Shown piece after piece: positions 8,691 to 47,314 of a stretch of DNA of 64,000 bases. A model generated the notes under the pieces. It was not told the DNA's origin. It was given only the letters and a program-made list of their open reading frames with translations, and did no database searches. Within the stretch, counting starts at the first letter, position 1, and every line of letters begins with the position of its first letter. The position numbers and the translations under genes are program-made. Source of the DNA: Hyperoplus lanceolatus (Eukaryota; Chordata; Actinopteri; Uranoscopiformes; Ammodytidae); contig CM049403.1 in the NCBI GenBank assembly GCA_026929865.2, positions 7,511,001 to 7,575,000 of the forward strand. Direction: 5' to 3'.

Positions 8691-9044
8691 ACCCGGAACT
8701 CGGAAATGTCCGACTTGGTAGTTCCGAGTTCCGACCTGTCTGTGTTCCAGTGCATCTGCTCGGGAAAGTATGGAAGCCTACAACCTTTCTCATCCAAATA
8801 ACTAAACGTTAGGCTCTAGCAAGTTACTGTTGCCAGGTACCGGTAGATCCATAGACAATATGTGGTGAAGTCGGAAATTTCCGAGTTCCCAGTATAACTG
8901 GAACGCACCGTCAGAAGCCGGCTCATGACATACGTCATGACCAAACGTTATGCGATTGGTTGGCTGATCCAGAGTGGCACTGGGCAGATCCAATCGTTTT
9001 AAACTTCAACAGAAACCCGCCTCCAAGTGAGTGAACGTTTGCCC

Positions 9045-10330
9045 ATAAGGTCCTCAATGACATCCAATTAAACACAGACAGTGGCAAAAGTTCTGTTTTA
9101 GTTTTACTGGATCTCAGTGCCGCTTTTGACACAGTTGACCACAGCATATTACTAGATCGACTAGCAAACTGGGTTGGACTCTCTGGAACTGTACTAAACT
9201 GGTTTGAATCCTACTTAAAGGACAGAGATGACTATGTGTCAATTGGCAATTTCACATCTGAGCGGACACATATTGAATGCGGGGCCCCCCAATGTTCCAT
9301 TCTTGGGCCTCTTCTGTTTAACATCTACATGCTCCCACTAGCTCATATTATGAATAAGAACAAATTATGCTACCATAATTATGCAGACGACACACAAATT
9401 TACATAACCATATCACCAGGAGACTACAGTCCGATACAGGCATTGAGTAAGTGCATTGAACAAATCAATGATTGGATGTGCCAAAATTTCCTTCAATTAA
9501 ACAACGACAAAACTGAAGTAATTGTCTTTGGTGCCAAAGATGAACAATTAAAAGTCAGCGCACAGCTTACATCTGTTATGCTAGAAACCACACACCAAGC
9601 CAGAAATCTTGGTGTTGTCATAGACTCCAACTTGAATTTCAAGAAACACATTAAATCAATTAATAAGTCAGCATACTACCACCTTAAAAACATATCAAGA
9701 ATTAAAGGACTTATGTCTCAGCAAGATTTAGAAAAACTTGTCCATGCATTTATCTTTAGTAGACTTGACTACTGTAACAGTGTCCTTGCAGGCCTTCCAA
9801 AAAAATCTATCAGACAGCTTCAGCTAATTCAGAACGCTGCTGCTCGAGTCCTCACTAGAACCAAAAAAGTGGATCACATTATCCCAGTTCTGAGGTCTTT
9901 ACACTGGCTTCCTGTCACTCAAAGAATTGATTTCAAAATACTGATGTTGGTTTATAAAGCACTAAATGGTGATGTTGGTTTATAAAGCACTAACTCTTGG
10001 GACAGGTTTACTTACAGTCCCAAGAGTTAGGACTGAACGAGGAGAAGCAGCTTTTAGTTTTTATGCACCAAATATCTGGAACAAACTCCCAGAAAACTTG
10101 AGGTCTGCTGCAACCTTCAGTTCTTTTAAATCGAGTCTGAAGACTTTTCTGTTTCCATTTTAACCTGTACTTTTTATTTTATTGAATTGTTTTACTTCTT
10201 TTCATTCGCTTTTAAATGTCTTCTAATGTGTTTTATGTATTTTAATCTTGCCCCTGTAAAGCACTTTGAGTGGCCTTGTGTTTGAATTGTGCTATATAAA
10301 TAAACTTGCCTTGCCTTGCTTTGCCTTGCC
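9045..10330 (+). mobile_element. L2-type LINE, 5'-truncated, reverse transcriptase C-terminal half
   Basis: A non-LTR retrotransposon fragment. Translation from about 9048 gives the palm region of a reverse transcriptase, with LDLSAAFDTVDH upstream and the catalytic YADDTQIYI box at 9380-9406. It continues into the thumb/C-terminal region (LVHAFIFSRLDYCN, SLHWLPVTQRIDFKIL). The longest open frame is 9236-9985 and a second piece, 9966-10163, carries the end of the ORF (FYAPNIWNKLPENLRS). The 3' end has the typical fish L2 tail: 'gctatataaataaa' followed by TTGCC repeats to about 10330. The endonuclease and 5' part are absent. At the break between the two frames a 23-bp direct repeat and an inverted repeat mark a deletion. 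Inserted in a short inverted-repeat element. Confidence 0.9.
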
Positions 10331-14599: not shown

Positions 14600-16906
<2,307 letters not shown>

Positions 16907-17529
16907 CTTTTTCCTGTGGAAAGGTATTTGGGAGTGAGTGTGAATGATACATCTGGTGGTATTCTAAATGTTCCTATTGTCAACATGAAACGGCCCTCAT
17001 GAAGAGGCCAAAGGCAACAGTGGATTGATCCTACTCTGCCATACAGCTCCAATGTTGAACAAAAACTATTTTACTACATCAATACGTTTAAGAGGCGGTT
17101 CTCTCCTTACCATGATGTACACACTGTAGCTGTATTTTTGAGTCAATCCCACATCCTGCCATCCTGCTGCTGTATACTTTTCTCTGGCTCATTAAATGTG
17201 GAATAATCCACAGCTGAAAATAGTCCCCAGAGAATGCACTCTTTTACTTCTGTTTGACTCATATTTGCTACAATCTACAGTGCTGCCCAGCTGTTTTGCT
17301 GTTTTAGGAAAGTCTTTTTCTAAAGATAGAAATATATGTTTGTGAGCTGCTTTTAAGGATTTGCCTCTTCAGTAGGAGACAATGGGCTCAGGCTTAGAGC
17401 CAAGAACATGGTCGTCCAGTTCTTTCCCAGGGACAGACTGTACATGGGATTTGATGACAACAAATTAAATTTTTTGACAAATAAATAAATAAATAAAATA
17501 CATTAAAAAGATATCCCTCTTCATTATAG

Positions 17530-18383
17530 TCCTAGATTACGTGCTCAGAAAAGCCATTAGTGGGCGGGAGCAGGACCTCGGCTTCACCCTAACCCCAAGG
17601 AGGTCAAAGCGACACCCTGCAGTTGTCCTGACAGACCTGGACTACGCGGATGACATCAGCCTGCTTTCCAGCAACATGGAGCAAGCACAGGAACTCCTGA
17701 ACAGAGTGGAGCTGGAGTGCGCCAAGGTTAGCCTTAGGCTAAACGCCAAGAAAACAGAGGTCATCACCTACAACATCTCACCAGAGCATCAACCGCTGAC
17801 AACAACTGGTGGCACTGTGCTGAAGGAAGTCGAGGACTTCAAGTATCTGGGCTCATGGGTGAACTCAACCGAGCAGGACCTAAAGGTGAGGAAGGCACTC
17901 GCATGAACGGCATGACCTGTGTGTGGAACACCAACCTCCCCCGTCAAATCAAACTCAGCTTCTTCTTTGCAACGTTAGAGTCTGTTCTCCTCTACGGCAG
18001 CGAATGCTGGTCCCTGAAGCCAACCTTGCAGAAGTCTCTAGACGGGTGCTACACCAGAATGCTGCATGCAGTACTAAACATCAGCAAGAGCACACGTTAC
18101 TAACAGTAACCTGTATGAAGGATTACCAAGGGTTAGCGAGAAAGTAGCTTGCAGGAGAATGAGACTGTCAGGACACTGCCAAAGACACCAAGAGCTGCCA
18201 GCCAGCAAACTGGTACTATGGGAACCAAATCATGGTCATCGGTCTTGAGAACGTCCTACACTAACCTACGTGGATGTCCTCAAGAAGGATGCAGGAGTGC
18301 AAAGTACCAATGAACTGGCCAGATGTATGGAGAATCGGGATGACTGGAAGCAACAATGGAGGGCTCGTCTGAGGACGACCTAG
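17530..18383 (+). mobile_element. LINE reverse transcriptase fragment (RTE-like), decayed
   Basis: The frame from 17541 encodes the C-terminal part of a non-LTR reverse transcriptase: the catalytic LDYADDISLLS box near 17637-17669, then LNAKKTEVITYN and a DFKYLGSWV block. After about 17890 the frame shifts, and a second frame carries the typical GSECWSLK segment. The 3' part ends with DDWKQQWRARLRTT and a stop at 18381-18383. At least one frameshift and the missing 5' part show it is dead. The clade (RTE versus a relative) is inferred from these motifs only. It is not related to the L2-type copy at 9045. Confidence 0.85.
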
Positions 18384-25353: not shown

Positions 25354-25489
25354 ACACTGTCCGATCAGCTCTGTCCCTTCAGCTGACACTTCTCCTCTCA
25401 CCTTGTAGCAGGCTATTCTGACCCCACACGCCTTGATGGTTTGTTTGACCAGCGTGTGCTGACAGAACCACCCTAGGAGACCTCTTCTG

Positions 25490-26430
25490 TCCACTAATCT
25501 GTTCTCCTCCTTATCTACAGCCCAAAGCTTTTTTCTCTTCAATCTAAAATTCAATCTCTATTCTCCAATCCCACAAGACTATTTTCTATCTTCTCAACCC
25601 CTCCTTGCCCCCTCCACCCCACCTCATCCCTTCTACAGAGCAAATTTAAACTTTTCTTGTCAAGAAGATAGTTGACATTTGTTCCTCATTTTTCCCGGTT
25701 GGCTGTCCTACATCCACCTCTTCATCTTCTATTCTATCCTCATTTCACTTGATTCCAAACAAGGTATTAACCCTAGTTAACTCCCACTGCCCAACCACTT
25801 GCCCCCTTGACTCCATCCCTTGGACGTATTACAAAGGTGCATCTCATATTATTAGAATATCATGGACACACTTTTTTTCTGCAATTTAATTCAAAAGGTG
25901 AAAGTTCTATTTATTCTAAATTCATTAGACATAAAGTGAAATGTCTCAGGCCCTTTTTTGTTTCATTCAGCAGATTAAGGCCAAACCACAACATCTTGCT
26001 CTTTGGTGGTGTGTGCTTGAACGTGTCATCCAATCTCTGCAGTCAGAATGCGATTGAAGTCCAGCTGCTTTTCAACCTATACCCAAGTTTTCTATGTTCA
26101 ACACTACACTGCTCCTCTGCATCCTGCACTGCCTACCACCACTGACTGTTTGAAGACACTGGTACTTACCTGCTGACCAAAATGCAAAATGGCTCAAGCC
26201 CATCCTAGATCCAGAACATAGTCTAACCTCTCACCCCATCCAAACACATGGGCTTTGCTAATGCCTGTATGCTACTTGAGCCTCAACAAAATCACATCAG
26301 TTTGCTGTTACTGCATCCACGATGGTGGAAGTAGCTCCCCATTGACATCTGGGTCTCTACACATCTTCCATTGCAGACTGTTGGCTCATCTGTTCAGATT
26401 GCACCTTGGCCCAGGAAAACAAATTAAATA
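25490..26430 (+). mobile_element. Rex1-like LINE remnant, interrupted by a Tc1 end
   Basis: Translation near 25560-25620 gives an FSNPTRLFSIFSTPP-type segment, and around 25765-25830 a PTAQPLAPLTPSL segment, recalling the linker before the reverse transcriptase of Rex1-type LINEs. Near 26318-26405 a frame reads GGSSSPLTSGSLHIFHCRLL then AHLFRLHL, like the extreme C-terminus of such elements. The middle is missing, and a Tc1-type terminal segment (25835-25985) sits between the two parts. Stops and frameshifts are present. Family assignment is by motif memory. Confidence 0.6.
25835..25985 (+). mobile_element. Left terminal fragment of a Tc1/mariner-type element
   Basis: Begins AGGTGCATCTCATATTATTA and continues 'gaatatcatgg'. 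The inverted end at about 28800-28957 belongs to the same family (its complement begins AGGTGAAACTCGAAAAATTA, then 'gaatatcgtg'). Only the terminal ~150 bp is present, with no transposase. Confidence 0.75.
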
Positions 26431-33600: not shown

Positions 33601-35832
33601 TCACCGACCACTTTATTAGGTACAGCGGTTCATTTTCTTGTTAACACATATAACCAATCAATCAGCCAATCACATGTCAGCAACTCAATGCATTTAGGCA
33701 TGTAGACCTTGACGGGACAACTTATTGAGGTTAAAACCGAGCAACAGAATGGGGAAGAAAGGGGTTTTAAGTGACTTTGAACATGGCATGGTTGAGGGTG
33801 CCAGGAGGGATGGTATGAGTATTTCAGAAACTGCTGATCTACTGGGATTTTCACTCCAAACCATCTCTAGGGTTTACTGAGGATGGCCCGAAAAAGAAAA
33901 AATATCCAGTGAGCGTCATTTGTGTGGACGTAAAATGCCTTGTTGAAGTCAGAGGTCAGTGGAGGATGGGTATACTGGTTTGAGATGATAGAAAGGCACC
34001 AGTAACTCAAATAACCACTCGTTACAACCAGGGTATGCAGAATACCATCTACGAATGCAAAACACGACCAACCTTGAAGCAGACCCCACCGGGTGCCACT
34101 CCTTTCAGCTAAAAACAGGAAAATGAGGCTACAATTCTCACAGGATCCCCAATATTGGACAATAGAAGATTGAAAAATCATGCCTGGTCTGATGAGTCTC
34201 GATTTCAGTTGCGACATTCAGATGGCAGGTTCAGAATTTGGCATAAACAACATGAAAGTATCGATCCATCCTGCCGTGCACCATCAACCATGCCATGTTC
34301 AAGGTCACCTAAACCCCCTTTCTTCCCCATTCTGATGCTCGGTTTGACTTCAGTACATTGTCTTGACCACGTCTAAATGCCTAAATGCATTAAATTGCTG
34401 CCATGTGATTGGCTGATTAGCTTTTTGTTTTTATAAGCCATTGAACAGGTGTACCTAATAAAGTGGCGGGTGAGTGTATATTGTTCATTGAGTGAAACTC
34501 TTTTTAAGAATTCAGCGTCAGAATCTAATTAGTGAAGTTTACCTGAGGGCAGTTACTGCAGAAACACCAACTTATTGAGCTTAAATGTGTCTCTTATGTG
34601 ATGTTCTTTTCTCGTGTGTAGGAATGTGGGCAGTCGATGGGCCCTGGAACAGGCCAAGTCCAACCTGGTGAATGAATACCTGCTGGTGGGAGTGACTGAG
34701 GAGCTGGAGGACTTTGTCATGATCCTGGAGGCAATGCTGCCACGCTTCTTCAAGGGGGCGACCGAGCTCTACAGAACAGGTACCAACACAACACATAGCC
34801 ACACACAGTCAACCCCGCTACTCCAACATTCTGCTTGAATTGTGTGTGTTTGTGCGTGTGTGTGTTAGTGAGCATCAAGCATTTACTGTAAAATTAAATC
34901 TGCTGTATAAGACACAGTCTGTTTCGTGGTGAGTGCATGGAAACCTTTTGGCGAAATCTGCCATTTTTTTAAACCAAAATCGACCACCTACGTGGTTCGT
35001 GTCGATCAGAAAAACAAATCAGCTCGGGAAGTGTGAGTCATCACACAGAGAGCATTGGTCTGTCACCAGCTGTGTGGATATAATAACCCAAAAAGGTTTG
35101 CGAAGGAGTCAAGTCAACTGAAAATTACAAAATACATGGCAGTCAGAAAGCCCGAGCTAAGAGATCAAATTGGAGGAAACGAGAACTGTTTCCGCCAGTC
35201 ACTAACTTAGCGTGTTTGGCTCCTACGCTTTGGCCCCATGGCGCAGCAAAGGTCCTTTCTGGTGGCCCTGGAGGGAGGGAGGGAGGGAGGGGGGGGGGGG
35301 GTATTATGGCACACACTGGTAATGGCGGCACATGTCTGTGACAAAGCTTTTAGCTCGATTGTAGCGCTATCTGTTGAGTATAACACAATAGCACAATAAA
35401 ATGCATCTGCAATTCTTACTGGTTTATTGGTTGCACCGGTATAGAGGGCACACCCTAGAATTATTATTATTTTATTTTAAGTGCATCTTATACACCAGAG
35501 TTTACGGTATGTATATATCAATGAGCTTGTTCTGCTCACCAATGTGTAGACACCCCTGTCTTGTCTAGACTAGCAGACTCCTTAAACCTTCTTATGTTCC
35601 TCCAGGAAAGAAGTCCCATCTGCGAAAGACCACTGAGAAGAAGCCCGCCGCCAAAGAGACAATCACCAAGCTGCAGCAGTCCGACATCTGGAAAATGGAG
35701 AATGAGTTTTACGAGTTTGCCCTGGAACAGTTTCAGTTTGTGCGTGCCCATGCCGTCAGGGAGAAGGATGGAGAACTTTACATCCTGCCTCAGAGCTTCT
35801 TCTATGAAAAGATCTACCCCAAGGTCAACTAA
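27692..35832 (+). CDS. HS2ST1: Heparan sulfate 2-O-sulfotransferase 1, 7 coding exons
   Basis: Golgi type II membrane enzyme that transfers sulfate from PAPS to the 2-OH of iduronic (and glucuronic) acid in heparan sulfate. Coding exons: 27692-27815, 30796-31043, 31794-31879, 32310-32448, 32869-32966, 34622-34779, 35606-35832. All borders are GT/AG and the joined frame gives 359 residues (human about 356). In order: a short cytoplasmic tail; a signal anchor at about residues 10-27; a coiled stem with Gln/Glu; the 5'-phosphosulfate-binding RVPKTAST at 83-90; possible N-glycosylation sites NTT 111 and NVT 130; the catalytic FYHGHV with His143 and His145; the 3'-phosphate-binding [16 protein letters not shown] from 167; and a conserved C-terminal half ending EKIYPKVN. 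The start at 27692 (MGLLRFMM) matches the family start; an in-frame ATG at 27662 is less likely. The stem segment around residues 58-77 is Ala/Gly-rich and unlike the mammalian one. Introns hold Tc1, SINE, hAT-like and L1 remnants. Confidence 0.97.
28066..28301. mobile_element. Truncated element with GCGTTCC end, HS2ST1 intron 1
   Basis: Begins TTGCGTTCCGAATCGCATAC and shares 'tttcatcataacattg(c/t)gcc' and 'ctgtc(g/a)catccc' with 57250-57310, so it belongs to the CCCTGCGTTCCAA family. It stops abruptly where the Tc1 transposase fragment begins. Confidence 0.65.
28302..28957 (+). pseudogene. Tc1/mariner-type transposase, 3' part with right end
   Basis: A cut-and-paste transposon remnant in HS2ST1 intron 1. 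An open frame at 28428-28706 (93 residues) contains [18 protein letters not shown], the region of the third catalytic acidic residue in Tc1-type DDE transposases, followed by IVKRKM and a C-terminus ending at 28706. Upstream, 28302-28427 is the same gene in a shifted frame (SVDKLYGDE). The N-terminal DNA-binding half and the first two catalytic Asp are missing. The 3' flank ends in the family's inverted end (CGAGTTTCACCT to 28957) followed by TA. It cannot be active. Confidence 0.85.
29975..30256 (+). mobile_element. tRNA-derived SINE in HS2ST1 intron 1
   Basis: The head carries a Pol III B box GGTTCGATCCC at 30039-30049 and a degenerate A-box region about 40 bp upstream. The body continues to a tail with 'taaagcgctttgggt' and 'gcgctatgtaagtggagtcc' followed by ATTTACCATT, a tail shared by many fish SINEs. 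A short GT run lies at 30148-30161. Orientation is sense to HS2ST1. Confidence 0.8.
31135..31330. mobile_element. hAT-like element fragment in HS2ST1 intron 2
   Basis: Starts TAGGGCTGTCCCGAATACC, resembling the ends of fish hAT elements, and includes inverted CGAATACTCG...CGAGTGTTCG. No matching right end or target duplication was found, so it is truncated or the assignment is wrong. Confidence 0.45.
32465..32815 (-). mobile_element. 5'-truncated L1 3' end in HS2ST1 intron 4
   Basis: The minus strand translates near 32790-32640 to [20 protein letters not shown], then [20 protein letters not shown] and PYMT. This fits the extreme C-terminus of L1 ORF2 in fish (W..PP..W...ER..Y....F...W.P pattern). 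The element's 3' end at about 32470 carries a T run on the + strand, that is, its poly(A). One stop interrupts the frame. It lies antisense to HS2ST1 and only about 55 bp upstream of exon 5. Confidence 0.7.
33589..34480 (+). mobile_element. Decayed Tc1-type transposon in HS2ST1 intron 5
   Basis: Inverted ends: left ATACACTCACCCTCACCGAC then CACTTTATTAGGTAC; right GTACCTAATAAAGTGGCGGG then TGAGTGTATA, with TA at the outer edges. A transposase start at 33751 ([14 protein letters not shown], then a helix-turn-helix [10 protein letters not shown]) stops after about 42 codons. A later frame at 34155-34376 carries [16 protein letters not shown], around the second catalytic Asp. At 892 bp it is shorter than a full Tc1 (about 1.6 kb), so it is internally deleted as well as frameshifted. 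Confidence 0.88.
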
Positions 35833-36762: not shown

Positions 36763-38080
36763 TAAGCTGCACATTATCTAATGAGAGTATGTGTCTCTTA
36801 CTGGAAAAACAGCTTGAAACACTGATACTCAGGCAGTTTTAATGTTTAACTTTTTGTTGTGGTACTCCAACTATTTTGACTTGCACTTACATAAAGTTTG
36901 GGATCCTAAAAGAGTTCCTGCTTGTTTATTGACACACATTAGTCTAAATTATAGCAGCAGAGGCTTATAGTCCATATTAAAGGTGAAGTAAGCGATGTAT
37001 TTATGTTAATATAAGTATTAAATCGCTCTTTATTCATACAGTGATCACGTATATAGTGTGCACGTTTCATAAAGCCGATCTTTCAGTCACTCGAAGTGCA
37101 TGTTATCGGCAAATACAATTTTCAGGGATCCCTCTACTAATAACCAATCAGAAGAGAGAACGCTACAAACCGGCACCCGTGAAGAGCGACAGATGAGTGA
37201 ATGCGCCTACAATGGCAGAGCAGGTAAAAATCCTTCACAATGTCTGTTTTGATGGTTTTCATCATGTTTTATCACACTTATGGATCTGAGATGATGCTGC
37301 TGCGTGTGGTGACGAAGAAGGGGACTGCTGACTGCAGTCCCTGACAAGAAGTTAGCTAAACTGACCATTCTGCTTACTGAACCTTTAACGATCAAGCTTA
37401 TCGACTATATAAAGATGGTCGAGCTCCAAAATCCCTGGTTCCTACATTATTTTATTCTCCAGGGTGTCTTTTTGCTTGATCCACCCTGCCTGGATGTTGC
37501 CGTTTTTGACTGTGAGTGTTTGACTGTGCAGGGTGAATATTATCATTCCTGTTCAAACACTGCAGTTATGGCAGATTTCATTGATGGTCATTACTTAAAA
37601 CGTATCTTATGTACAGCTGAACCACAACCTTCTTGATAACTCAAATATATATTTCATTATTGGTGTACTAGACGAAGAAAGGAAGGTAATAAAACATTAC
37701 TCGGCCCTACGTGCATTTTTGGATGAATATGTATTTTCATAAACACTGATTTGCAACAATTATTATCATATATCATCATAATCAAACATTATGCAAATGA
37801 ACAGAAGATGGTGCTGAACATTTCAGACATGGTGCAACAGAGCACAGAAGAATTGTGTCTTCTGCTGCTGTCTTATTTGCCAGTGGGCCTTCATTCTAGA
37901 AAGGAAATTATATCTGCATGGTTAAAAGATTGTTCTTGAATCATTTATTTGCTTCATTTAACCTTTATTTGTACTCGAGGGAATCCAGACCAACAGCTGA
38001 GCAATTTTAAATTAACGCAGGTCTGGATATCCATGCTCTTCTCCCCCCACGTAACTTTGATTTGGTTTACTTTCCAGTTG
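36763..38080. other. Intergenic spacer between HS2ST1 and BRDT
   Basis: 36975-37160 begins 'attaaaggtgaagtaagcga' and looks like a short non-coding element, but its other end was not found. A block at about 37975-38035 shares the phrases AATCCAGACC and GGTCTGGATAT with the element at 38081. No host exon was recognised on either strand. Confidence 0.4.
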
Positions 38081-38191
38081 TAGGCTACCCTGGAAATCCA
38101 GACCTGACCATAGATAGTATATAATAAAACCAAACCTGACACTGCATATTTAAATTTGCCAGCTGTGGGTCTGGATTTCCAGGGCAGGCTA
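38081..38191. mobile_element. Short fold-back element, 111 bp
   Basis: Starts TAGGCTACCCTGGAAATCCA and ends TTTCCAGGGCAGGCTA. The ends are inverted over about 25 bp (CCCTGGAAATCCAGACC against GGGTCTGGATTTCCAGGG). It is non-coding. Confidence 0.8.
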
Positions 38192-38594
38192 GTGGAGTAG
38201 GGCCAGAGTAGGGCAGGACTACAGCCAGTGAAGGGCCATCCAGTCAGAACAACTGAGGGCGGTGACTGATTTCCGACCCCGCCCCTTCCCGCGGTCCGCA
38301 GCGAAGACCATGGCGAAGACCCATTCTTTTACCCACGGAAATTCAAACGAGTGACATTATTCTCAGGAGGTTTCGGGACCGCACTGGTCGGTCGGTAGGC
38401 TATTCTTGATGATCGCTAATCCAAGATGCTACCATGTCACTCGCCATTTTGTTTGGAAGATCTAAACATTTTTTTTTTAAATTTTACCTAATGCTTTAAA
38501 AAACAGGGTATTTACATATTTCCAGGGGGCACAGGGTGTTTTCGCAGTGCATAATGTAACCGTTAACAGCGCCTTTCTCTGCAGAGAAGCGATC

Positions 38595-38730
38595 TGGAAC
38601 ACGTGCAGGTAGAGTTCTGACCAATCAGTTCCAGGGGCTCGAACAGAGGGCTATAAATTTGAGGCGGTTGCCGTAGAGACGTTTGCCACTGAAGAGTTGA
38701 ACGCAAGAGCTCCCCGTGGTATCGCGTAAG
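38595..38730 (+). promoter_or_regulatory. Probable BRDT core promoter and untranslated exon 1
   Basis: In order: E-box CACGTG at 38600-38605; CCAAT box in GACCAATCAG at 38620-38626; TATA box CTATAAAT at about 38651-38658; and a splice donor AAG/GTAATG with the exon ending at 38730. The spacing fits a transcript start near 38682 and a first exon of roughly 50 bases. A GC-rich stretch (38270-38330) lies upstream. BRDT coding starts in the next exon at 44964, so an untranslated first exon is required, and this is the best candidate between HS2ST1 and BRDT. No transcript data are available. Confidence 0.55.
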
Positions 38731-39923
38731 GTAATGCTAGCACTGTACTGCTTACTCATTGCCATGTTTTCCAAACTTAAATCTCTATTAAGGTTACTTG
38801 TGTTTCTAGACTTACGACTGAAATATGTGGGGAAGGGAAGCTGGCATAAGTTGACAAGGAAGGAGCCCATATCGTTAACGCAACCGCATCATGACAGGTG
38901 CTACACGTTAGCATTAGGTATGCTGCTAAGTACTATGCGTGAAGTGACAATTGCATGTTTTTAAACACAGCGACCCTTTTTTGGTAGATTGAACAAGTTG
39001 TACAAAGGAAGGGAAGCTGGTAATAACGAGTAATTGCAGTGCCGACTGGCAGGTTGCTAACGATTTAAAGTGGTTAAATGCACCTGGCAACGTTAGCATT
39101 TCTTTTGGAACTGCTAATTTTAGCCAGTGTGACTGCGTAGGTTCCATTGCGTCATTTAAACAATTCGTCGGATAGAAACTGAAAATAAACTCTGTACGAC
39201 TAGCTTCGTTCCCGTCCCATTTTGCAAGATGCCCTCTGAACAACATGGAAGTTGGCTATGAGTTAGCTATGACTTAAATGAACCGGTGGGCGTGGTGATG
39301 GCTTCACTTGTTGGCGTTTGCTCTGTCAACAGTGCAGCATGCAGCCATGCTGCCTGTTCACAACGATACGTATAATTTGAAAAAGATACCAATCTCTTAT
39401 GACTGAGTGTTTCACAAGCGTTCATATTAATAGTTGACAATTAGCTAAAGGTTTGAAATACTAGTATGTATACCTATTTATTAATCAACTATATTTTCTT
39501 GAACTCGAAGCAGGTGAACTTATGGTTCACATCCACATGGCATGTAACGTTCACTGACTGTCTTTGGTGAATCTCTAACATATCTAAATGCCACCGCTCA
39601 CACAATGTGTGATGGTTGAATAGAAAGCAGGGTACGTTTTTTAAAGACAGCCTTATTTTAGAAAACGGAACGTTTTCATAATTTTGGCGTGGATGTCTAG
39701 CAGATCTGCCCCTCTTTACACTTTATTTGCCTTTTGCACCACCCACAGTGCTCAAGTACTACAGAACCCCAGATGATATTTTTCATAACAATCATTGTGT
39801 CTACTAACTCCTAGTACTTCTAATGGGTTATTTTGTATTGTTTGGTTTTGAAAAAAGGAAAAGGTACACCGTTTCTTCCCCAGGGGGTGCCCAGAGTCGA
39901 AAAAAACAAGAAAAACAACAAAC

Positions 39924-40265
39924 AAAATGAAATATAAATAAAAAGATGGAGAGAAAAAAAAAAAAAAAAAAAATTGAAAATTATAGTGTGAAGAGTGGAG
40001 AATAAAATGAAATGGGAAAGTAAATATATAATTAAAAATTAAGTAGAGTTTGGAGATAAGATAGTTTGTTAAATTGATAAAGGATATGAAGGATTTAGTT
40101 AATTTTTTTTTAGATGGGTAAATTGTATTGTTATGTAGAAAAGATATTTTAATAGGATTAAAAAAAAAATATTAATTTGAGAAGAGAAATAGAGAATTTG
40201 GAATTTTTATATAAAATAGTGGATTTAATAATATAATAATGATTTGATAAGTTATAGTTTAGAGT
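39924..40265 (+). other. 342-base tract with no cytosine on the + strand
   Basis: From 39924 to 40265 there is not one C, while I count 64 G. A and T make up the rest, including A20 at 39954-39973. The sequence is not a simple repeat. C is present normally up to 39923 and again from 40266. It lies in BRDT intron 1 on the sense strand, about 1.2 kb after the putative promoter. No family was recognised. Confidence 0.95.
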
Positions 40266-41313
40266 CTGCTGAAGCCTACCTCTTTGACTGCAACAAATAT
40301 TTTGTGGAAGCAATTTTCAAGTGTACCAAACAAGATGACCGATGGCCAAAAAACAGACAAACTTAAATTTTGCAACCGCAATCTTTATTGTTGGAATGGT
40401 TGGTATATATTGACTTCAAATAATAGTTGAATACGTCTTTTATTTATTTGCTATATGTTACCGGTACTTACAATCAGTAGATATGTTTGTCAGGCAGATA
40501 AAAAAAAAATGTGCATGTCTCCCTGTTTACAAAAGAAAAATGTTGCATTGACATTGTTTTTTGACATTTAGTTTTTTTATGCTTGTCAATTTAATTTATA
40601 AAGCGCCCAGTATTATATATCAGTTGCTTATACGATTTACATTTGTTTACATTATCTTTCATTCAACTATTTAATCTAGTGATTTCACAATTGTTGTACA
40701 TGGCCCAAAAGGAAGTTTCTCTTTACTTGGATATGACATGCTTAAACACTAGTTTTAATGAAAGTTGAAGCAGTACTTGCATGGCAATTTTACTTAACTT
40801 TACTGAATGACTTAAAGAACTTTATAATTAAAATACTTTTGAGTGTGAATACTTTTATGTATTACTTGACATACAATTGTTTCAGCTTTATATGTCCACA
40901 AAGATAACAAAGCTTTGTCAGAATAATGCCAGCTGTATGGAATTGTCAAATGGCATGATTGCTTACCAATCTTACAATTGAATGAAAGTCATCACCGTGA
41001 CGGCAAGCTGTAGGAGGAGCTCAACATTTAGCCACTAAGCTGTGGCTCATACTTGATATGACTTTGCACTTACAAGCACCCAATTCAAGGACAAAAATAT
41101 GAAGCACCGTACTTTACTGGATTTGTTCATGTATGAAACCATTGCTTTTGTTTGTCTTCTTAAAAAAATAAAATGGAATTGAGTTATAGATCTTGCAATG
41201 TATATTTATTTGGGTTGGGTTTCAAATGAAAAACAATTGTTTGTATGACAATCTTTTAAATTAAAGAGTTTTTGTGGTTGAAATTCTATTATACACTTTT
41301 TTTTATAATTGTG

Positions 41314-43744
41314 TAGGGGAGAGTGGCCTAAGTTGTGCCACTTTTTACTTAAAGTGACTTTAAAGTGAGGCCTTGACAGTAAAGTCTCCAACTCAAATAT
41401 ATACATATATTTCAGGGTGTTGTGCATCCCTGGCAATAAAAACTTTGGATCTGGAATCAACTGTTGAAGAAATATAGCTTTCGGAAAAAAAGTGGTCTTG
41501 TGGCACAACTTGCCCCCCGGTGTGGTGTAAGTTGTGCCATTGGAGAAAATACCATGGGGTAAATTGTGCCGTTGATATATCCCAAAAACTGTAATGCAAG
41601 ACAAATCCATTAGACAATCACTTATTTAAGGTTTGTTATTCAAATCTTTATTAGTGTGAATGCTGGAGCTTCCAGCGTTCACACTATTGTTATCCAAATC
41701 TTTATTCCACTTCTTCTTCCGTACGTTTTTTGGACCTTCATACCTCCTTCAAATCTTCAGCTATTTCAACCATACAAATACCAAAATGTTCAGCTCTTTA
41801 AGGACATGTGTGGACCTCTTTTAACATTTTTCTACCTTTTTAAACTTTTTAAAATATTCAGCTTTTTAACAAATTATTTTAACACTGAAGCGGGTGGGAG
41901 CAGCATTCCAAACCGCTCCTCCGGCATTTTTTCAGCTACAGCCTCCATTCAAACTTTAAACAATTCACATGAATTGCAGCTATTCAATTCTTTGACAACT
42001 TTTTAAAATATTCAACTGTCTTTGAACAAACACAGTTTTAGTTTTAAGCTTTTTTCAACCTCTTTCTAAATTTATTATGGGATCCGGATGGGACGGAATG
42101 TTCAGAGGCAGAGTGGGGGAACCAACTGTTACAGTGCAGAACTGGTGTGAAAATACACCAAAACCTTCCACATAACTGCCTCTCACTCCCACAAATTAAA
42201 CCCTACGTGGATAATTTTTACACCTAAATGTAGGACATATTCTGCCGGTCGCATAGATGTGACTACTGAATTAATCAGACCTATACAATGGGAGGTCTGG
42301 GTTTCCAAGCTAAATGTTGTCCAACCAACTGCCACCATGATAACTGAGACATGACATTTCTGGAGAAAGGCAGACTGTACCACACTTTTAAAAGGCTCTG
42401 GTTCTCATATTCTTCACATTACAGGCACAATCTTCACACTGTGTCTTCATCAGATTCTTCTGGTTCTAACAATAAAATAATTTTGTCAGTTAGACTCACG
42501 GTCCGTCAGTTAGAGACAGTGGTTTGAGGTGAAGTTTCGGATGAAATTACCTCTCTGAGGCCTCTAAAAGGTGGGATTTCTGCCTGATCACAGACCCTCA
42601 ATAAGACATACACTCACCTTGGTGACTCACTATGCCCATTAAAGGGCAATTTCACTTTTTTTTCTAGATTTTTTTTTTTTTTCTTTTTTCCGCTTTATTA
42701 GACAATTTGGAGAGACAAAGTTGAAATGGGGTAAAAACCTCTGCTTTTTGAAGGCCTATTTCACACATACATTTTTTTCATGTCTTTCAATTATAATTTT
42801 ATCTAGACATTTTTAAATATTCAACAACATTCCTATTAGAGTTCAACAATTCACTACTGTTCATACTTAAGACTATTTATTACTTTTCCACATCTTCATA
42901 CTCCTTTAGCTGATTCATATACATTCAAGCCATCAAGGTAGTTTAGCTCCAAGTCTATTCAATTACTATTTCATAGTTTTAAGATTTTTATCCATGTCTT
43001 TCAACTTCTTCATAATTTCAGCAAGAAATGTTATTCAAACCTCTATATATTCAACTTTTCAACTCCTTTTAAACTTATTTTACACAATTATGACCTTTAT
43101 AAACTTCAACAACTTTATAGACCTTTTTCAGATCTTCATACTCAGCTATCCAGTTTAGCGTAAGCTGTTTCAGCATTCACACGCATTTTCAGCAGGAAAT
43201 GCATTTTCTAGTTTAAAGTAAATATTTTACAAAGATTGAAGGTCAATTTTCTTAAACAAGGCCTAGCAGATCTAGTAAAGCACTTTGGACAGTGCAAACT
43301 GTTAATGTGCTTTTATAAATACATTTTACTTACTTATAACTCACCTAGGCCCCCCTGGCACAAATCACCCCATCCCCAGAATTTTGGATAATAAGCATGA
43401 TGCAGCAGTTTAGGGCTGACATTGTGTTATCTATATAGACACAAAGTGTAGCATACTAAAGCATTAAAACATGTGTCAAAGGTTTTCAAACGTGTCTATG
43501 ATTGTTCAGACAGTAATCAAAAAACCTTGATCATGGGAATTTTACTTTTAAGGCAAAAAACTGTTTTTTGTTTTAGCTTAAATGTGCTTATATCTTATTC
43601 CATGTTTCTCCCTTATTTGCAGGATGAGTTTAATGGATGGCTCTTCTTAAATATGTGGTCACATTTCCAATTTCTTCTATGGTTTTCTAGAAACAAGGGG
43701 TGGCACAACTTGCCCACCGGCACAACTTAGGCCACTCTCCCCTA
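41314..43744. mobile_element. DNA transposon, 2.4 kb, long perfect inverted ends
   Basis: The left end TAGGGGAGAGTGGCCTAAGT then TGTGCC is exactly inverted at the right (GGCACAACTTAGGCCACTCT then CCCCTA). The phrase GGCACAACTTGCCC also recurs near both ends. The interior has no recognisable transposase. It encloses a second inverted-end unit at 41654-43182. It lies in BRDT intron 1. The superfamily is not recognised; the outer TA could be the target duplication. Confidence 0.85.
41654..43182. mobile_element. Inner element with GTGTGAATGCTG ends, G-poor
   Basis: Begins with a near-perfect 14-bp-arm hairpin (GTGTGAATGCTGGA, 3-nt loop, TCCAGCGTTCACAC; 41654-41684). It ends with TTTCAGCATTCACAC at 43168-43182, an inverted match of the start. 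The body is pyrimidine-biased with recurring TTCAA/TTCA words: in 42841-43080 I count 51 C against 17 G. The 116-residue frame at 41656-42006 has no recognisable domain. Confidence 0.65.
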
Positions 43745-45036
43745 TTACTGTATCAGTGTTAGTAGGCCATGGCATATTCTTTGTTACTTTTAGTACATTA
43801 TCTTTTCAAATTCTGAATGTATTGGTTCGAAACATGGATCCATAATTTACCTAATTTGGCAGATCTCAAATGCTGAATGAAACAGTTTATGAGATACTAT
43901 AGGTGGCAGTATTACCCATGAGAAGCAGAAAATACTCCCCTCTTCAGCATCCACTGTTAGTCTTACTTGAATACAATTATGTGCCCCAGACATATTTAAA
44001 GCAAAGCGTGTCAACAAAAAACTTTGTTCAGATTTTAAATAAAAATTTAAAACTTATTTTAGCCTTTGTGTACCTGTAATGGAGGATAAACTAGGTGTTT
44101 TTTTGTTGTCAACAATCCCAGGAAAATACCAAAACCATCAACTTTCTGATGTCACAACATTGTCTGTGGTGCTCAACTGAAATACAATAATTTATTTGTA
44201 AGTGTTGGTTTGTAAAATAGATAGGCTCTGTTTTATTTAAACTGCTATAAATCTTATTTTGATCTATTTTTTTCTTCTCATAAGACAGGTAGTGGATCAT
44301 GAGGAGATTTTCACAGATTGACATCTTGCGTTACTCCAGAATTGCTGAATCCATATTTTTTTTTTTAAATATCTGGTGTCTTGTTGAAAGATTATAAGCA
44401 ACAGTCAAATTTTTGGTTTTGGTATTTTCTTGGGTTTGATAAAAAATATTTAATATTTCCAGACTTTACATGCACATGTTGTGGGCAGGATAATGAATGT
44501 TCCTTCTTACCAAAGCAAACAGACTACGAATGAATAACAACCCACTAATTGGCACATCAGAGACATGACAGCATTTCATAAATGAAGGCGGTTGTATCAA
44601 GCCTTTTGTGGCTCCACAGGAAGTGCCACAACAGCATTTATCAGGGCTGGAGACTACACCTTTTAAAAATGTAGGGCTGTGACTTACGAATAATTCAACC
44701 TATTAAACGCTGTAGCTCCTTTTTTCTGCTTGACGTTAGTGCTTTGAGAATGTTATCCACTACTACTGTAACCCATCCAATTTGCCATACGTAATTGTCT
44801 GTGGTTGCATTGTGGGTAATGTAGGCACTGGGTGTTTAGTGTCATATGTAAGAAATGTAGGCACAATGGGTTTCAGCATTGACATATTAATTATTGAATC
44901 TAAATGTCCTGAATTTCCATTTTTTACTGAAACCATGCAAACTGCTCTGAATTCCTTGTGTAGGAAATCTTGTGATGAGCACTACAGATCATCACAGTAC
45001 TCCAGACTTCCCCCTTCATGGCCTTTGGACAACACA

Positions 45037-47314
45037 ATGTCTGCTGTGAAACCCTGTCCCACTGTGAGTGGAAATCCCCCTCCACCAGAGTTCCTTAAGC
45101 CCAAGTCTCCTGGCTGTGTGACCAATCAGCTCCTGTATCTGGACAAAGTGGTGATCAAAGCTTTATGGAGCAATAACTTCTCCTGGCCTTTTCGCCAGCC
45201 AGTTGATGCAGTGGCACTGCGTCTCCCAGTAAGTAGTTCAACTGTAACTGTAGCCCCACAGTCACACTCTTACATTTGCTATTTTTGAGATGTCATTATG
45301 ATTTTTGTCTTCAGTAGTTCTCTTAGACTTTGGTCTGGGAAGGAAATATTTAGGTGTATTAATGCCAGTGTCTTTGTTGTCTTTCAGGATTATTATACAA
45401 TCATTAAAGATCCTATGGATCTGGGCACTATTAAGAAGCGACTCCAGAACAAATATTACTGCAGAGCCCTTGAGTGTATTCAAGACTTCAACACTATGTT
45501 CACCAACTGCTACGTGTACAATCGGGTAAGAGAATTCTATTTGTTTTGCTGTAAAACCCATCAACATGTAACATACATACAACAGCAGAGTTCAAAATAA
45601 TGTGTGATAATATAACAATATTGTGAAAAAGTTTTGTAATGCAAAAGTGAGTCTGAACTGGAATAATGTTCCATGAATATGGATAAAAAAAACTATATAC
45701 AAATTATTTCCACAGCCTGGAGATGACATTGTTTTTATGGCACAGTCCCTGGAGAAGCTTTTTTTGCAGAAAGTGTCCGAAATGCCCAAGGAAGAGTGTG
45801 AAGTTAAAGCAATCTCTACAAAGGAACCAGCCAAAGGGAGAAAGACCCCTGCAGGTATCATGAACATCAGCGGTCCCTCAAGACGTGTTCCAATATTGCC
45901 AATAATTTAACTTTGGATTGTTGGTCCATACTGCAATTTTTCTGCCTTATTTTACCAATGTAAAACAGTTGTTTTGTATGGGTTTACTTTGCCTCCTGTC
46001 ATGCAGGTGTAATAAAGCAGAGATCCCTTGTATCAGAAGTTATTCTCCAGCAGACATTGACAGTCATTCCTACTGATGTGCCTAAATTCATCCCACCCAT
46101 CCAGTTCCCTGCACAACTTGATGCACCAGTAAGTATGCCACTGGTTTGCATGTGACATTTACATATAGACTTTAAATCATGAAATAAACTGTCTTACATG
46201 GCTAGATTGTGACACTGACTGGAGACAAAGTCACAATTGAGGCTCAGAGGTTCTGATGCTTGGCTTGTTATTTCAGTGAAATGTATTCCAATATAATGGT
46301 TAAACCCCCAATTCATATGCCATCGCTTGTTTGTAATCTTGAACCACACTTTTGAAAATGTCAAAATGCTAAACAACTTCTAAATTCTTTTCTAAATCTT
46401 CAGCTTAAAAAAGGTTTTAAGAGGAAAGCAGAGCCCGCCCCCTCGGTGGTGATGACCAGCAGCGAGGCGTCCCTGGCCTCCGAGCACTCTGCCCCGTGTT
46501 CCTTCCTCTCCAGGAGGGGCAGTGGAAGGCCCATCAAGCCTCCTAAGAAAGACCTGCCCCACACTGAGGGCAAGAAGGTCAGACTGTCTGAACAGCTCAG
46601 GACCAGCAATGACATCCTGAAGGAGCTGCTGGCCAAGAGACACTATGCCTACGCGTGGCCCTTTTACACCCCCGTCGATTCAGTGGGCTTGGGCCTGCAC
46701 GACTACCACGACGTCATCAAGCAGCCTATGGACCTGAGCACCATCAAGGTAAGAGGAACACGATGCTGATTTAATCGCAAAATATACCCTGCGTTCCAAA
46801 TCACATACTTTTCCCTTTCACTCTACTACATACTAAATCATGCTGTGTTCCATACTTCAAAATGCAATTGGATGTATTAGGGCATCCTGGTATATTTGGC
46901 ATACTTCATTTGACATGGAAGCGTCTTTGAGTGCCTTGAAAAGCGCTATATAAATCCAATCCATTATTATTATGGATGTATAGGGACATCCTTTTTCTGG
47001 CATACTAAATAGTATGGGTTATTGGAACGCAGGGATAATATTATCTTTGCGTTCAGTGTTCCTGACAGTGTTATTTCCTCAGAGAAAAATGGACCAAAGA
47101 GAGTATGACAGTGCAAAGGACTTTGCTGCTGATGTCCGACTGATGTTCTCCAACTGTTACAAATACAATCCACCTTCACATGAGGTGGTCTACATGGCCA
47201 GAAAACTGCAGGTATAGATCTCTTTTTAAGTTTCTGTTCCAAAAATTAAAGGAGGTGACCCTGTTGAGTTTTTTGTAAACTGTTGTTTTTCATTTAACTG
47301 CTGTCTACCTAAAT

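What the first reader, a model, noticed from the sequence alone, without database searches (positions are those of the whole stretch)
39924..40265. 342 bases with no cytosine on one strand, inside BRDT intron 1
The + strand lacks C completely for 342 bases but has 64 G. If G and C were interchangeable here the chance would be about 2 to the power -64. The tract is not a simple repeat, and normal C content returns abruptly on both sides. Such total one-strand loss looks like deamination of every C on exposed single-stranded DNA or cDNA (AID/APOBEC-like), or a hyper-edited retrocopy next to its A20 run. A strand-biased low-complexity sequence or an assembly artefact is also possible. It lies on the sense strand of a germline gene downstream of its promoter, where transcription could expose that strand.
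Basis: partly seen in the sequence, partly recalled or inferred. Interest (0 to 1): 0.7.

Follow-up and report, generated by a model that had tools for sequence, protein, structure and literature searches.

The report
A 342-base cytosine-free DNA tract
A short stretch of what appears to be a fish genome has lost every cytosine from one strand; it may be the scar of a single abrupt and recent event that turned C into T, though a foreign C-poor sequence or an assembly error has not been ruled out.

Summary
In detail: window 39924-40265 has 167 A, 111 T, 64 G and 0 C. It is not a tandem repeat. A local-composition model run over 60 x 64 kb gives a longest C-free run of 75.

Three features favour one abrupt C-to-T replacement on the + strand. 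(1) The right end carries GTTTAGAGTC and the left flank GCCCAGAGTC, like a target-site duplication whose right copy lost its CCC. It was found by eye, and its chance is 0.2-2% with narrow edge zones but 18% with wider ones. (2) In one A-rich stretch the pyrimidines switch from four C to five T at the left edge. (3) No C has been regained, so the event is young.

Against: the tract body is 64% purine, where C-to-T of ordinary local DNA predicts about 50%. Dinucleotides do not discriminate. No unconverted parent was found in the window, and the genome itself could not be searched. Zebrafish retrotransposons show at most a very weak editing signal, and conversion must have been nearly complete. 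An assembly artefact or a natively C-poor insert remains possible.

The parts
39924..40265 (+). C-free tract (A 167, T 111, G 64, C 0)
39889..39898 (+). Left copy of a candidate target-site duplication, GCCCAGAGTC (unconverted)
40257..40266 (+). Right copy of the candidate target-site duplication, GTTTAGAGTC (TTT where the left copy has CCC; its last C is the first base after the C-free run)
39899..39923 (+). A-rich left end of the presumed insert, 4 C and no T: pyrimidines not converted
39924..39973 (+). A-rich continuation including A20 (39954-39973), 5 T and no C: pyrimidines presumed converted
39974..40265 (+). Body of the tract, 44% A, 36% T, 20% G, no C; no convincing relative found in the window

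Best explanation
Most likely this is the scar of one recent germline event in which a stretch of + strand DNA lost every C to T at once. The event was perhaps coupled to insertion of about 360 bases at a staggered break (between the two copies of AGAGTC). In the favoured order, a break or nick at GCCCAGAGT(C) took in a single strand of copied or captured DNA; that strand, together with the right copy of the duplicated target, was either deaminated while single-stranded or copied without C; its complement was then synthesised from it and the change became permanent. Shown: the C-free tract, its edges, the near-matching 10-base repeat at the edges, and no convincing relative in the window. Inferred: that the missing base was C turned into T, that it was one event, that there was an insertion. 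Not known: the enzyme or cause. Deamination of single-stranded DNA and copying without dCTP predict nearly the same scar.
For: Zero C in 342 bases with 64 G, far outside the local model. The edges carry a 10-base direct repeat that is perfect except CCC/TTT, its right copy ending at the first C after the run. Under C=A or C=G the longest repeat is only 6 bases in the same zones. Matches of 10 or more under C=T: 0.19% of 50,000 random left zones with the right end fixed at the edge; 0.19% of 20,000 shuffled and 1.9% of 20,000 random left zones with narrow zones. The A-rich left end switches from 4 C/0 T to 0 C/5 T at the start of the tract; the edge is defined by the last C, so this is weak. 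In the dinucleotide test, C-to-T-converted real windows reach the tract's score in 56% of 205, against 7% (C>A), 11% (C>G) and 18% (C deleted): a slight lean to C-to-T. No C regained implies at most about 2-4% divergence since the event, if 20-40% of substitutions would make a C (assumed). Precedent: with APOBEC3A and a uracil-glycosylase inhibitor, new LINE-1 insertions carried strand-specific deamination, and one had a target-site duplication made inexact by C-to-T (PMC4003774, passages). Zebrafish AID and APOBEC2b raised mutation in E. coli (PMC3880073, passage), so fish do have enzymes able to do this in principle.
Against: The edge repeat was noticed by eye and its zones were set afterwards. 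With wider zones (39850-39923 against 40240-40290) 921 of 5000 random left zones (18%) reach it, and the exact 6-base part alone is common (17.7% of random, 2.4% of shuffled left zones). The tract body is 64% purine; only 0.6% of 2977 other windows are as skewed in either direction, so the parent must itself have been purine-rich. Dinucleotide log-likelihoods do not single out C-to-T: independence -611.41, C>T -611.65, C>G -611.71, C deleted -612.05, native steps -612.55, C>A -613.36. If 20-58 C were present (assumed numbers), conversion was at least 86-95% complete per site, whereas the APOBEC3 passages seen describe preference for TpC and CpC sites. Zebrafish retrotransposons showed a very weak, possibly negligible editing signal, and new L2 and L1 copies made with the tested deaminases showed no increase in G-to-A. 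No parent was found. By my reading, the changed copy and strand of the repeat are not those that the LINE-1 model of PMC4003774 predicts.
Confidence: 0.4

Rival explanations
1. Assembly, sequencing or data-preparation artefact: the tract is a chemically or enzymatically converted read, a low-quality consensus or an altered stretch placed in the contig.
For: Complete conversion is normal in vitro (bisulfite, enzymatic deamination; own knowledge) and should be rare in living cells. The body is close to a sequence of independent A, G, T letters (independence fits best of six models). It includes an A20 run.
Against: An artefact would not be expected to be bounded by a matching direct repeat, if that repeat is real (but). 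Runs of A10 and T9 inside look like real DNA.
Confidence: 0.27
2. Insertion of DNA that was already C-poor on this strand (an unrecognised repeat, a foreign AT-rich sequence, or filler made during break repair), with no conversion.
For: Composition of the body (44% A, 36% T, 20% G) resembles AT-rich DNA with C simply absent. The edge repeat can be chance: its exact part is 6 bases, and the C=T match of 10 is reached by 18% of random left zones when wider zones are allowed.
Against: At the local C fraction of 18.6% a C-free 342 bases has a chance of about 10^-30 at one place; a foreign parent of other composition was not modelled. No convincing relative in the window (the best plain blastn match is an A-rich 44-base one at E 0.010 to 16072-16111), none in plasmids by blastn, none by exact C=T patterns in bacterial and archaeal genomes (two segments) or viral contigs (one segment). 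No animal genome could be searched.
Confidence: 0.28
3. Copying without dCTP (a special case of the best explanation): a reverse transcriptase or repair polymerase made the new strand while C was unavailable and put T opposite every G.
For: It would explain context-free completeness, and why the right copy of the candidate duplication (newly made strand in target-primed synthesis) is changed while the left copy and both flanks are not. dNTP pool imbalance as a cause of hypermutation is recalled; related papers were seen only in a search listing (10 of 56 listed).
Against: The first 25 bases of the presumed insert keep 4 C. Dozens of G:T misinsertions in a row would stall most polymerases (own knowledge).
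Confidence: 0.05

Closest known systems
APOBEC3A deamination of LINE-1 integration intermediates (PMC4003774; abstract and passages seen)
   Same: Strand-specific C-to-T changes in newly inserted DNA and, in one recovered insertion, a target-site duplication made inexact by C-to-T.
   Different: There 39 G-to-A changes over 33 insertions with uracil repair inhibited; here total loss over 342 bases. By my reading the changed copy and strand do not match that paper's models B or C. Fish lack APOBEC1 and APOBEC3 (PMC3880073 passage).
G-to-A edited retrotransposons in vertebrate genomes (PMC3880073; abstract, section 12 and passages seen)
   Same: Clusters of strand-specific change fixed in a genome.
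   Different: Found in lizard L1 (85 of 32,872 elements); very weak, possibly negligible signal in zebrafish; clusters of changes rather than a stated complete loss.
C-coordinated mutation clusters in hominid evolution (PMC4864454; abstract and passages seen)
   Same: Germline clusters of changes at C on one strand.
   Different: Clusters of two or more changes within 50 bp, with changes 10 bp or less apart excluded, so a tract as dense as this one would not be called; no insertion in the definition; reported as a primate phenomenon.

Membership tests
AID/APOBEC hypermutated DNA | C-to-T changes on one strand against a known unmutated parent | tested here: inconclusive
   A parent is proposed only for the 10-base edge repeat (3 of 4 C changed; may be chance); none found for the tract
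AID/APOBEC hypermutated DNA | Preferred sequence motif, other C left | tested here: not met
   No C of any context remains in 342 bases; saturation could hide a preference. The motifs TpC/CpC are; WRC for AID is recalled
Retrocopy by target-primed reverse transcription | Target-site duplication | tested here: inconclusive
   GCCCAGAGTC/GTTTAGAGTC; chance 0.2-2% or 18% depending on zones; exact part 6 bases
Retrocopy by target-primed reverse transcription | Poly-A tail at the 3' end of the insert | tested here: not met
   On the + strand the A-rich part is at the left end and nothing like it lies at the right end; on the - strand the right end would have to be the 5' end and the tail would be T-rich
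Simple or satellite repeat | Tandem units | tested here: not met
   Only A20 and a 2.1-copy 19-mer inside, plus a 4-base overlap of one left-edge row
Simple or satellite repeat | Many copies in the genome | not tested
   The genome search did not complete
Deaminated young insertion | Little change since the event | tested here: met
   No C regained in 342 bases, under an assumed 20-40% of substitutions making C and if the tract is real

The most novel reading that the evidence does not exclude
In a fish germline, which has no APOBEC3 or APOBEC1, a newly inserted strand together with one copy of its target-site duplication was stripped of every C in a single event: either an unrecognised deaminase process of near-complete efficiency or DNA synthesis without dCTP.
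Probability: 0.17. Interest if true: 0.8.

Novelty: new variant of a known kind. Interest (0 to 1): 0.5.

Why it matters
Strand-specific C-to-T clusters are known, but complete loss of C over hundreds of bases in a vertebrate germline would point to a very thorough single-strand process, in a group reported to lack APOBEC1 and APOBEC3. Screens that drop closely spaced changes, such as the one in PMC4864454, would not see it. If it is an artefact, it is a warning that converted sequence can enter assemblies.

Tried and rejected
Tandem or satellite array: rejected. Structured RNA (Rfam gathering thresholds) or transfer RNA: none in the window. A parent inside the window was sought with the tract body (39974-40266, A-rich left part not included). 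With C read as T, A or G, both strands, ungapped: best scores 14-19, for which no null was run. With gaps, C as T or A: best bits 31-37, within 30 block-shuffled controls per case (medians 33-35, maxima 41-49). Plain blastn of 38900-41200 against the window (listing cut near 40 rows): best E 0.010, mostly A-runs. Exact patterns with Y for T: 0 matches (in genome contigs, window segments 39991-40031 and 40179-40228; in viral contigs, first segment). blastn against plasmids: no match. C-to-A or C-to-G instead of C-to-T: not separable by dinucleotides, but they do not lengthen the edge repeat. Slow transcription-linked deamination: set aside because no C remains and none has been regained. Coding sequence as it stands: not supported, each + frame of the tract has 11-17 stops and each - frame 2-7 TAA; whether an unconverted parent was coding was not tested, since conversion can create these stops. 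The long - strand ORF 39752-40171 exists largely because that strand has no G. One search, a search for the joined flanks, found only the right edge itself with 3 mismatches and adds nothing.

Change made on re-checking: a control with wider zones weakened the edge repeat, so I lowered the best explanation from 0.45 to 0.40 and the novel case from 0.20 to 0.17, and raised the artefact rival from 0.25 to 0.27 and the C-poor-insert rival from 0.25 to 0.28.

Not in print: I searched only the open-access library, by the terms (listed 15 of 233, 10 of 56, 10 of 17, 25 of 42, 12 of 52, 10 of 16, 8 of 125), and saw no report of such a tract in those listings; this is weak evidence of absence.

Full report
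Observation. The finding is real as sequence. Window 39924-40265 holds 342 bases with A 167, T 111, G 64 and no C, and it is the longest C-free run of the 64 kb window. The next three C-free runs coincide with GT/TG dinucleotide repeats and the fifth is 61 bases. A model with the second-order composition of the flanks gave a longest run of median 47 and maximum 75 in 60 simulated 64 kb sequences. The tandem-repeat finder sees A20 and a 2.1-copy 19-mer inside, and one row of the A-rich left edge reaches 4 bases into the tract.

Setting. The window looks like a teleost, by its long dinucleotide repeats and gene content; no tool named the species, so this is inference. HS2ST1 lies upstream and a BET bromodomain gene downstream, with bromodomain, BET domain and a BRD4-type C-terminal motif. 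The tract lies between the exon I read as the last of HS2ST1 (stop ending at 35832) and the first bromodomain exon (match 45082-45231). CpG observed/expected is 0.66-0.99 in the 500-base windows from 38001 to 39750, a candidate promoter, so intron 1 is plausible but not shown.

Edges. The right end of the tract reads GTTTAGAGT, followed by the first C; shortly before the tract the left flank reads GCCCAGAGTC. Read as a target-site duplication the copies are identical except CCC/TTT. I noticed this by eye and set the zones afterwards. Exact matches of 6 or more between the narrow zones occur in 17.7% of random left zones and 2.4% of shuffled ones, so the exact part alone is not significant. Matches of 10 or more under C=T occur in 1.9% and 0.19% (000 trials each). 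With the right end fixed at the end of the run they occur in 0.19% of 50,000 random zones, and matches of 9 or more in 0.55%. With wider zones, however, 921 of 5000 random left zones (18%) reach 10. In favour, only C=T lengthens the repeat: C=A and C=G leave it at 6 in the same zones. The duplication is thus suggestive at best. At the left end, 39899-39923 has 4 C and no T and 39924-39973 has no C and 5 T. The edge is defined by the last C, so the informative part is only that no T precedes it.

Is it C-to-T? Composition does not make this easy. The body (39974-40265) is 64% purine, matched in either direction by 0.6% of 2977 windows, whereas C-to-T change of ordinary DNA keeps purines near 50%. 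So the parent was purine-rich, or the C went elsewhere, or never existed. First-order dinucleotide log-likelihoods differ by less than two units between six models, and plain independence fits best. A calibration on 205 real windows per case leans slightly to C-to-T (56% of C-to-T-converted windows reach the tract's score; 7-18% for the others). No relative of the body was found in the window: ungapped scores reached 14-19 with no null run; gapped scores stayed within block-shuffled controls. Exact Y-for-T patterns found nothing in bacterial and archaeal genomes (two segments) or viral contigs (one segment), where a fish parent is not expected anyway.

One event, and young. If later substitutions create a C 20-40% of the time (assumed), the absence of any C in 342 bases bounds divergence since the event at about 2-4% (95%). 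This argues against slow build-up and predicts that the tract is confined to one species or a few close ones, or to one assembly.

Mechanism. Deamination of exposed single-stranded DNA during integration has a direct precedent: with APOBEC3A in cells stably making a uracil-glycosylase inhibitor, 33 LINE-1 insertions carried 39 G-to-A changes, and in a separate set of 12 insertions one duplication was made inexact by C-to-T (PMC4003774, passages). Against simply calling this APOBEC: fish lack APOBEC1 and APOBEC3, zebrafish retrotransposons showed a very weak, possibly negligible signal, and new copies made with the tested deaminases were not hypermutated (PMC3880073), although zebrafish AID and APOBEC2b did act as mutators in E. 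coli. Completeness of at least 86% (if 20 original C) to 95% (if 58) per site is needed. By my reading of that first paper's figure legend, the copy and strand of the duplication that change differ from what is seen here. In target-primed synthesis with the + strand as cDNA, the right duplication copy is part of the newly made strand and the left copy is old (own knowledge). A strand made without C would then give left intact, right changed, though the four C in the first 25 bases need another reason. Alternatively a break with 5' overhangs would leave the right + strand copy single-stranded and open to a deaminase. I cannot separate these.

Verdict. A real and extreme compositional anomaly with suggestive, not conclusive, signs of a single C-to-T event, perhaps tied to an insertion. 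An artefact and a natively C-poor insert each keep a little over one chance in four. Interest 0.5 pending the C=T genome search and raw reads.

Noticed in passing
window 9035-9985 and 17493-17906: Two reverse-transcriptase fragments (Pfam RVT_1), probably of LINE type (own inference): a possible source of copied DNA in this genome.
   Followed up: partly
window 25481-25630: C- and T-rich, G-poor stretch on the + strand (61 C, 6 G in 150 bases), the strongest negative skew among 150-base windows after dropping windows dominated by one dinucleotide.
   Followed up: no
window 38001-39750: CpG observed/expected 0.66-0.99, against 0.12-0.49 in the windows from 40501 to 46250: a candidate promoter 0.2-1.9 kb upstream of the tract.
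   Followed up: partly
window 39752-40171, - strand: A 139-codon open frame that exists largely because the C-free + strand gives a - strand without G (no TAG or TGA there); not evidence of a gene.
   Followed up: yes
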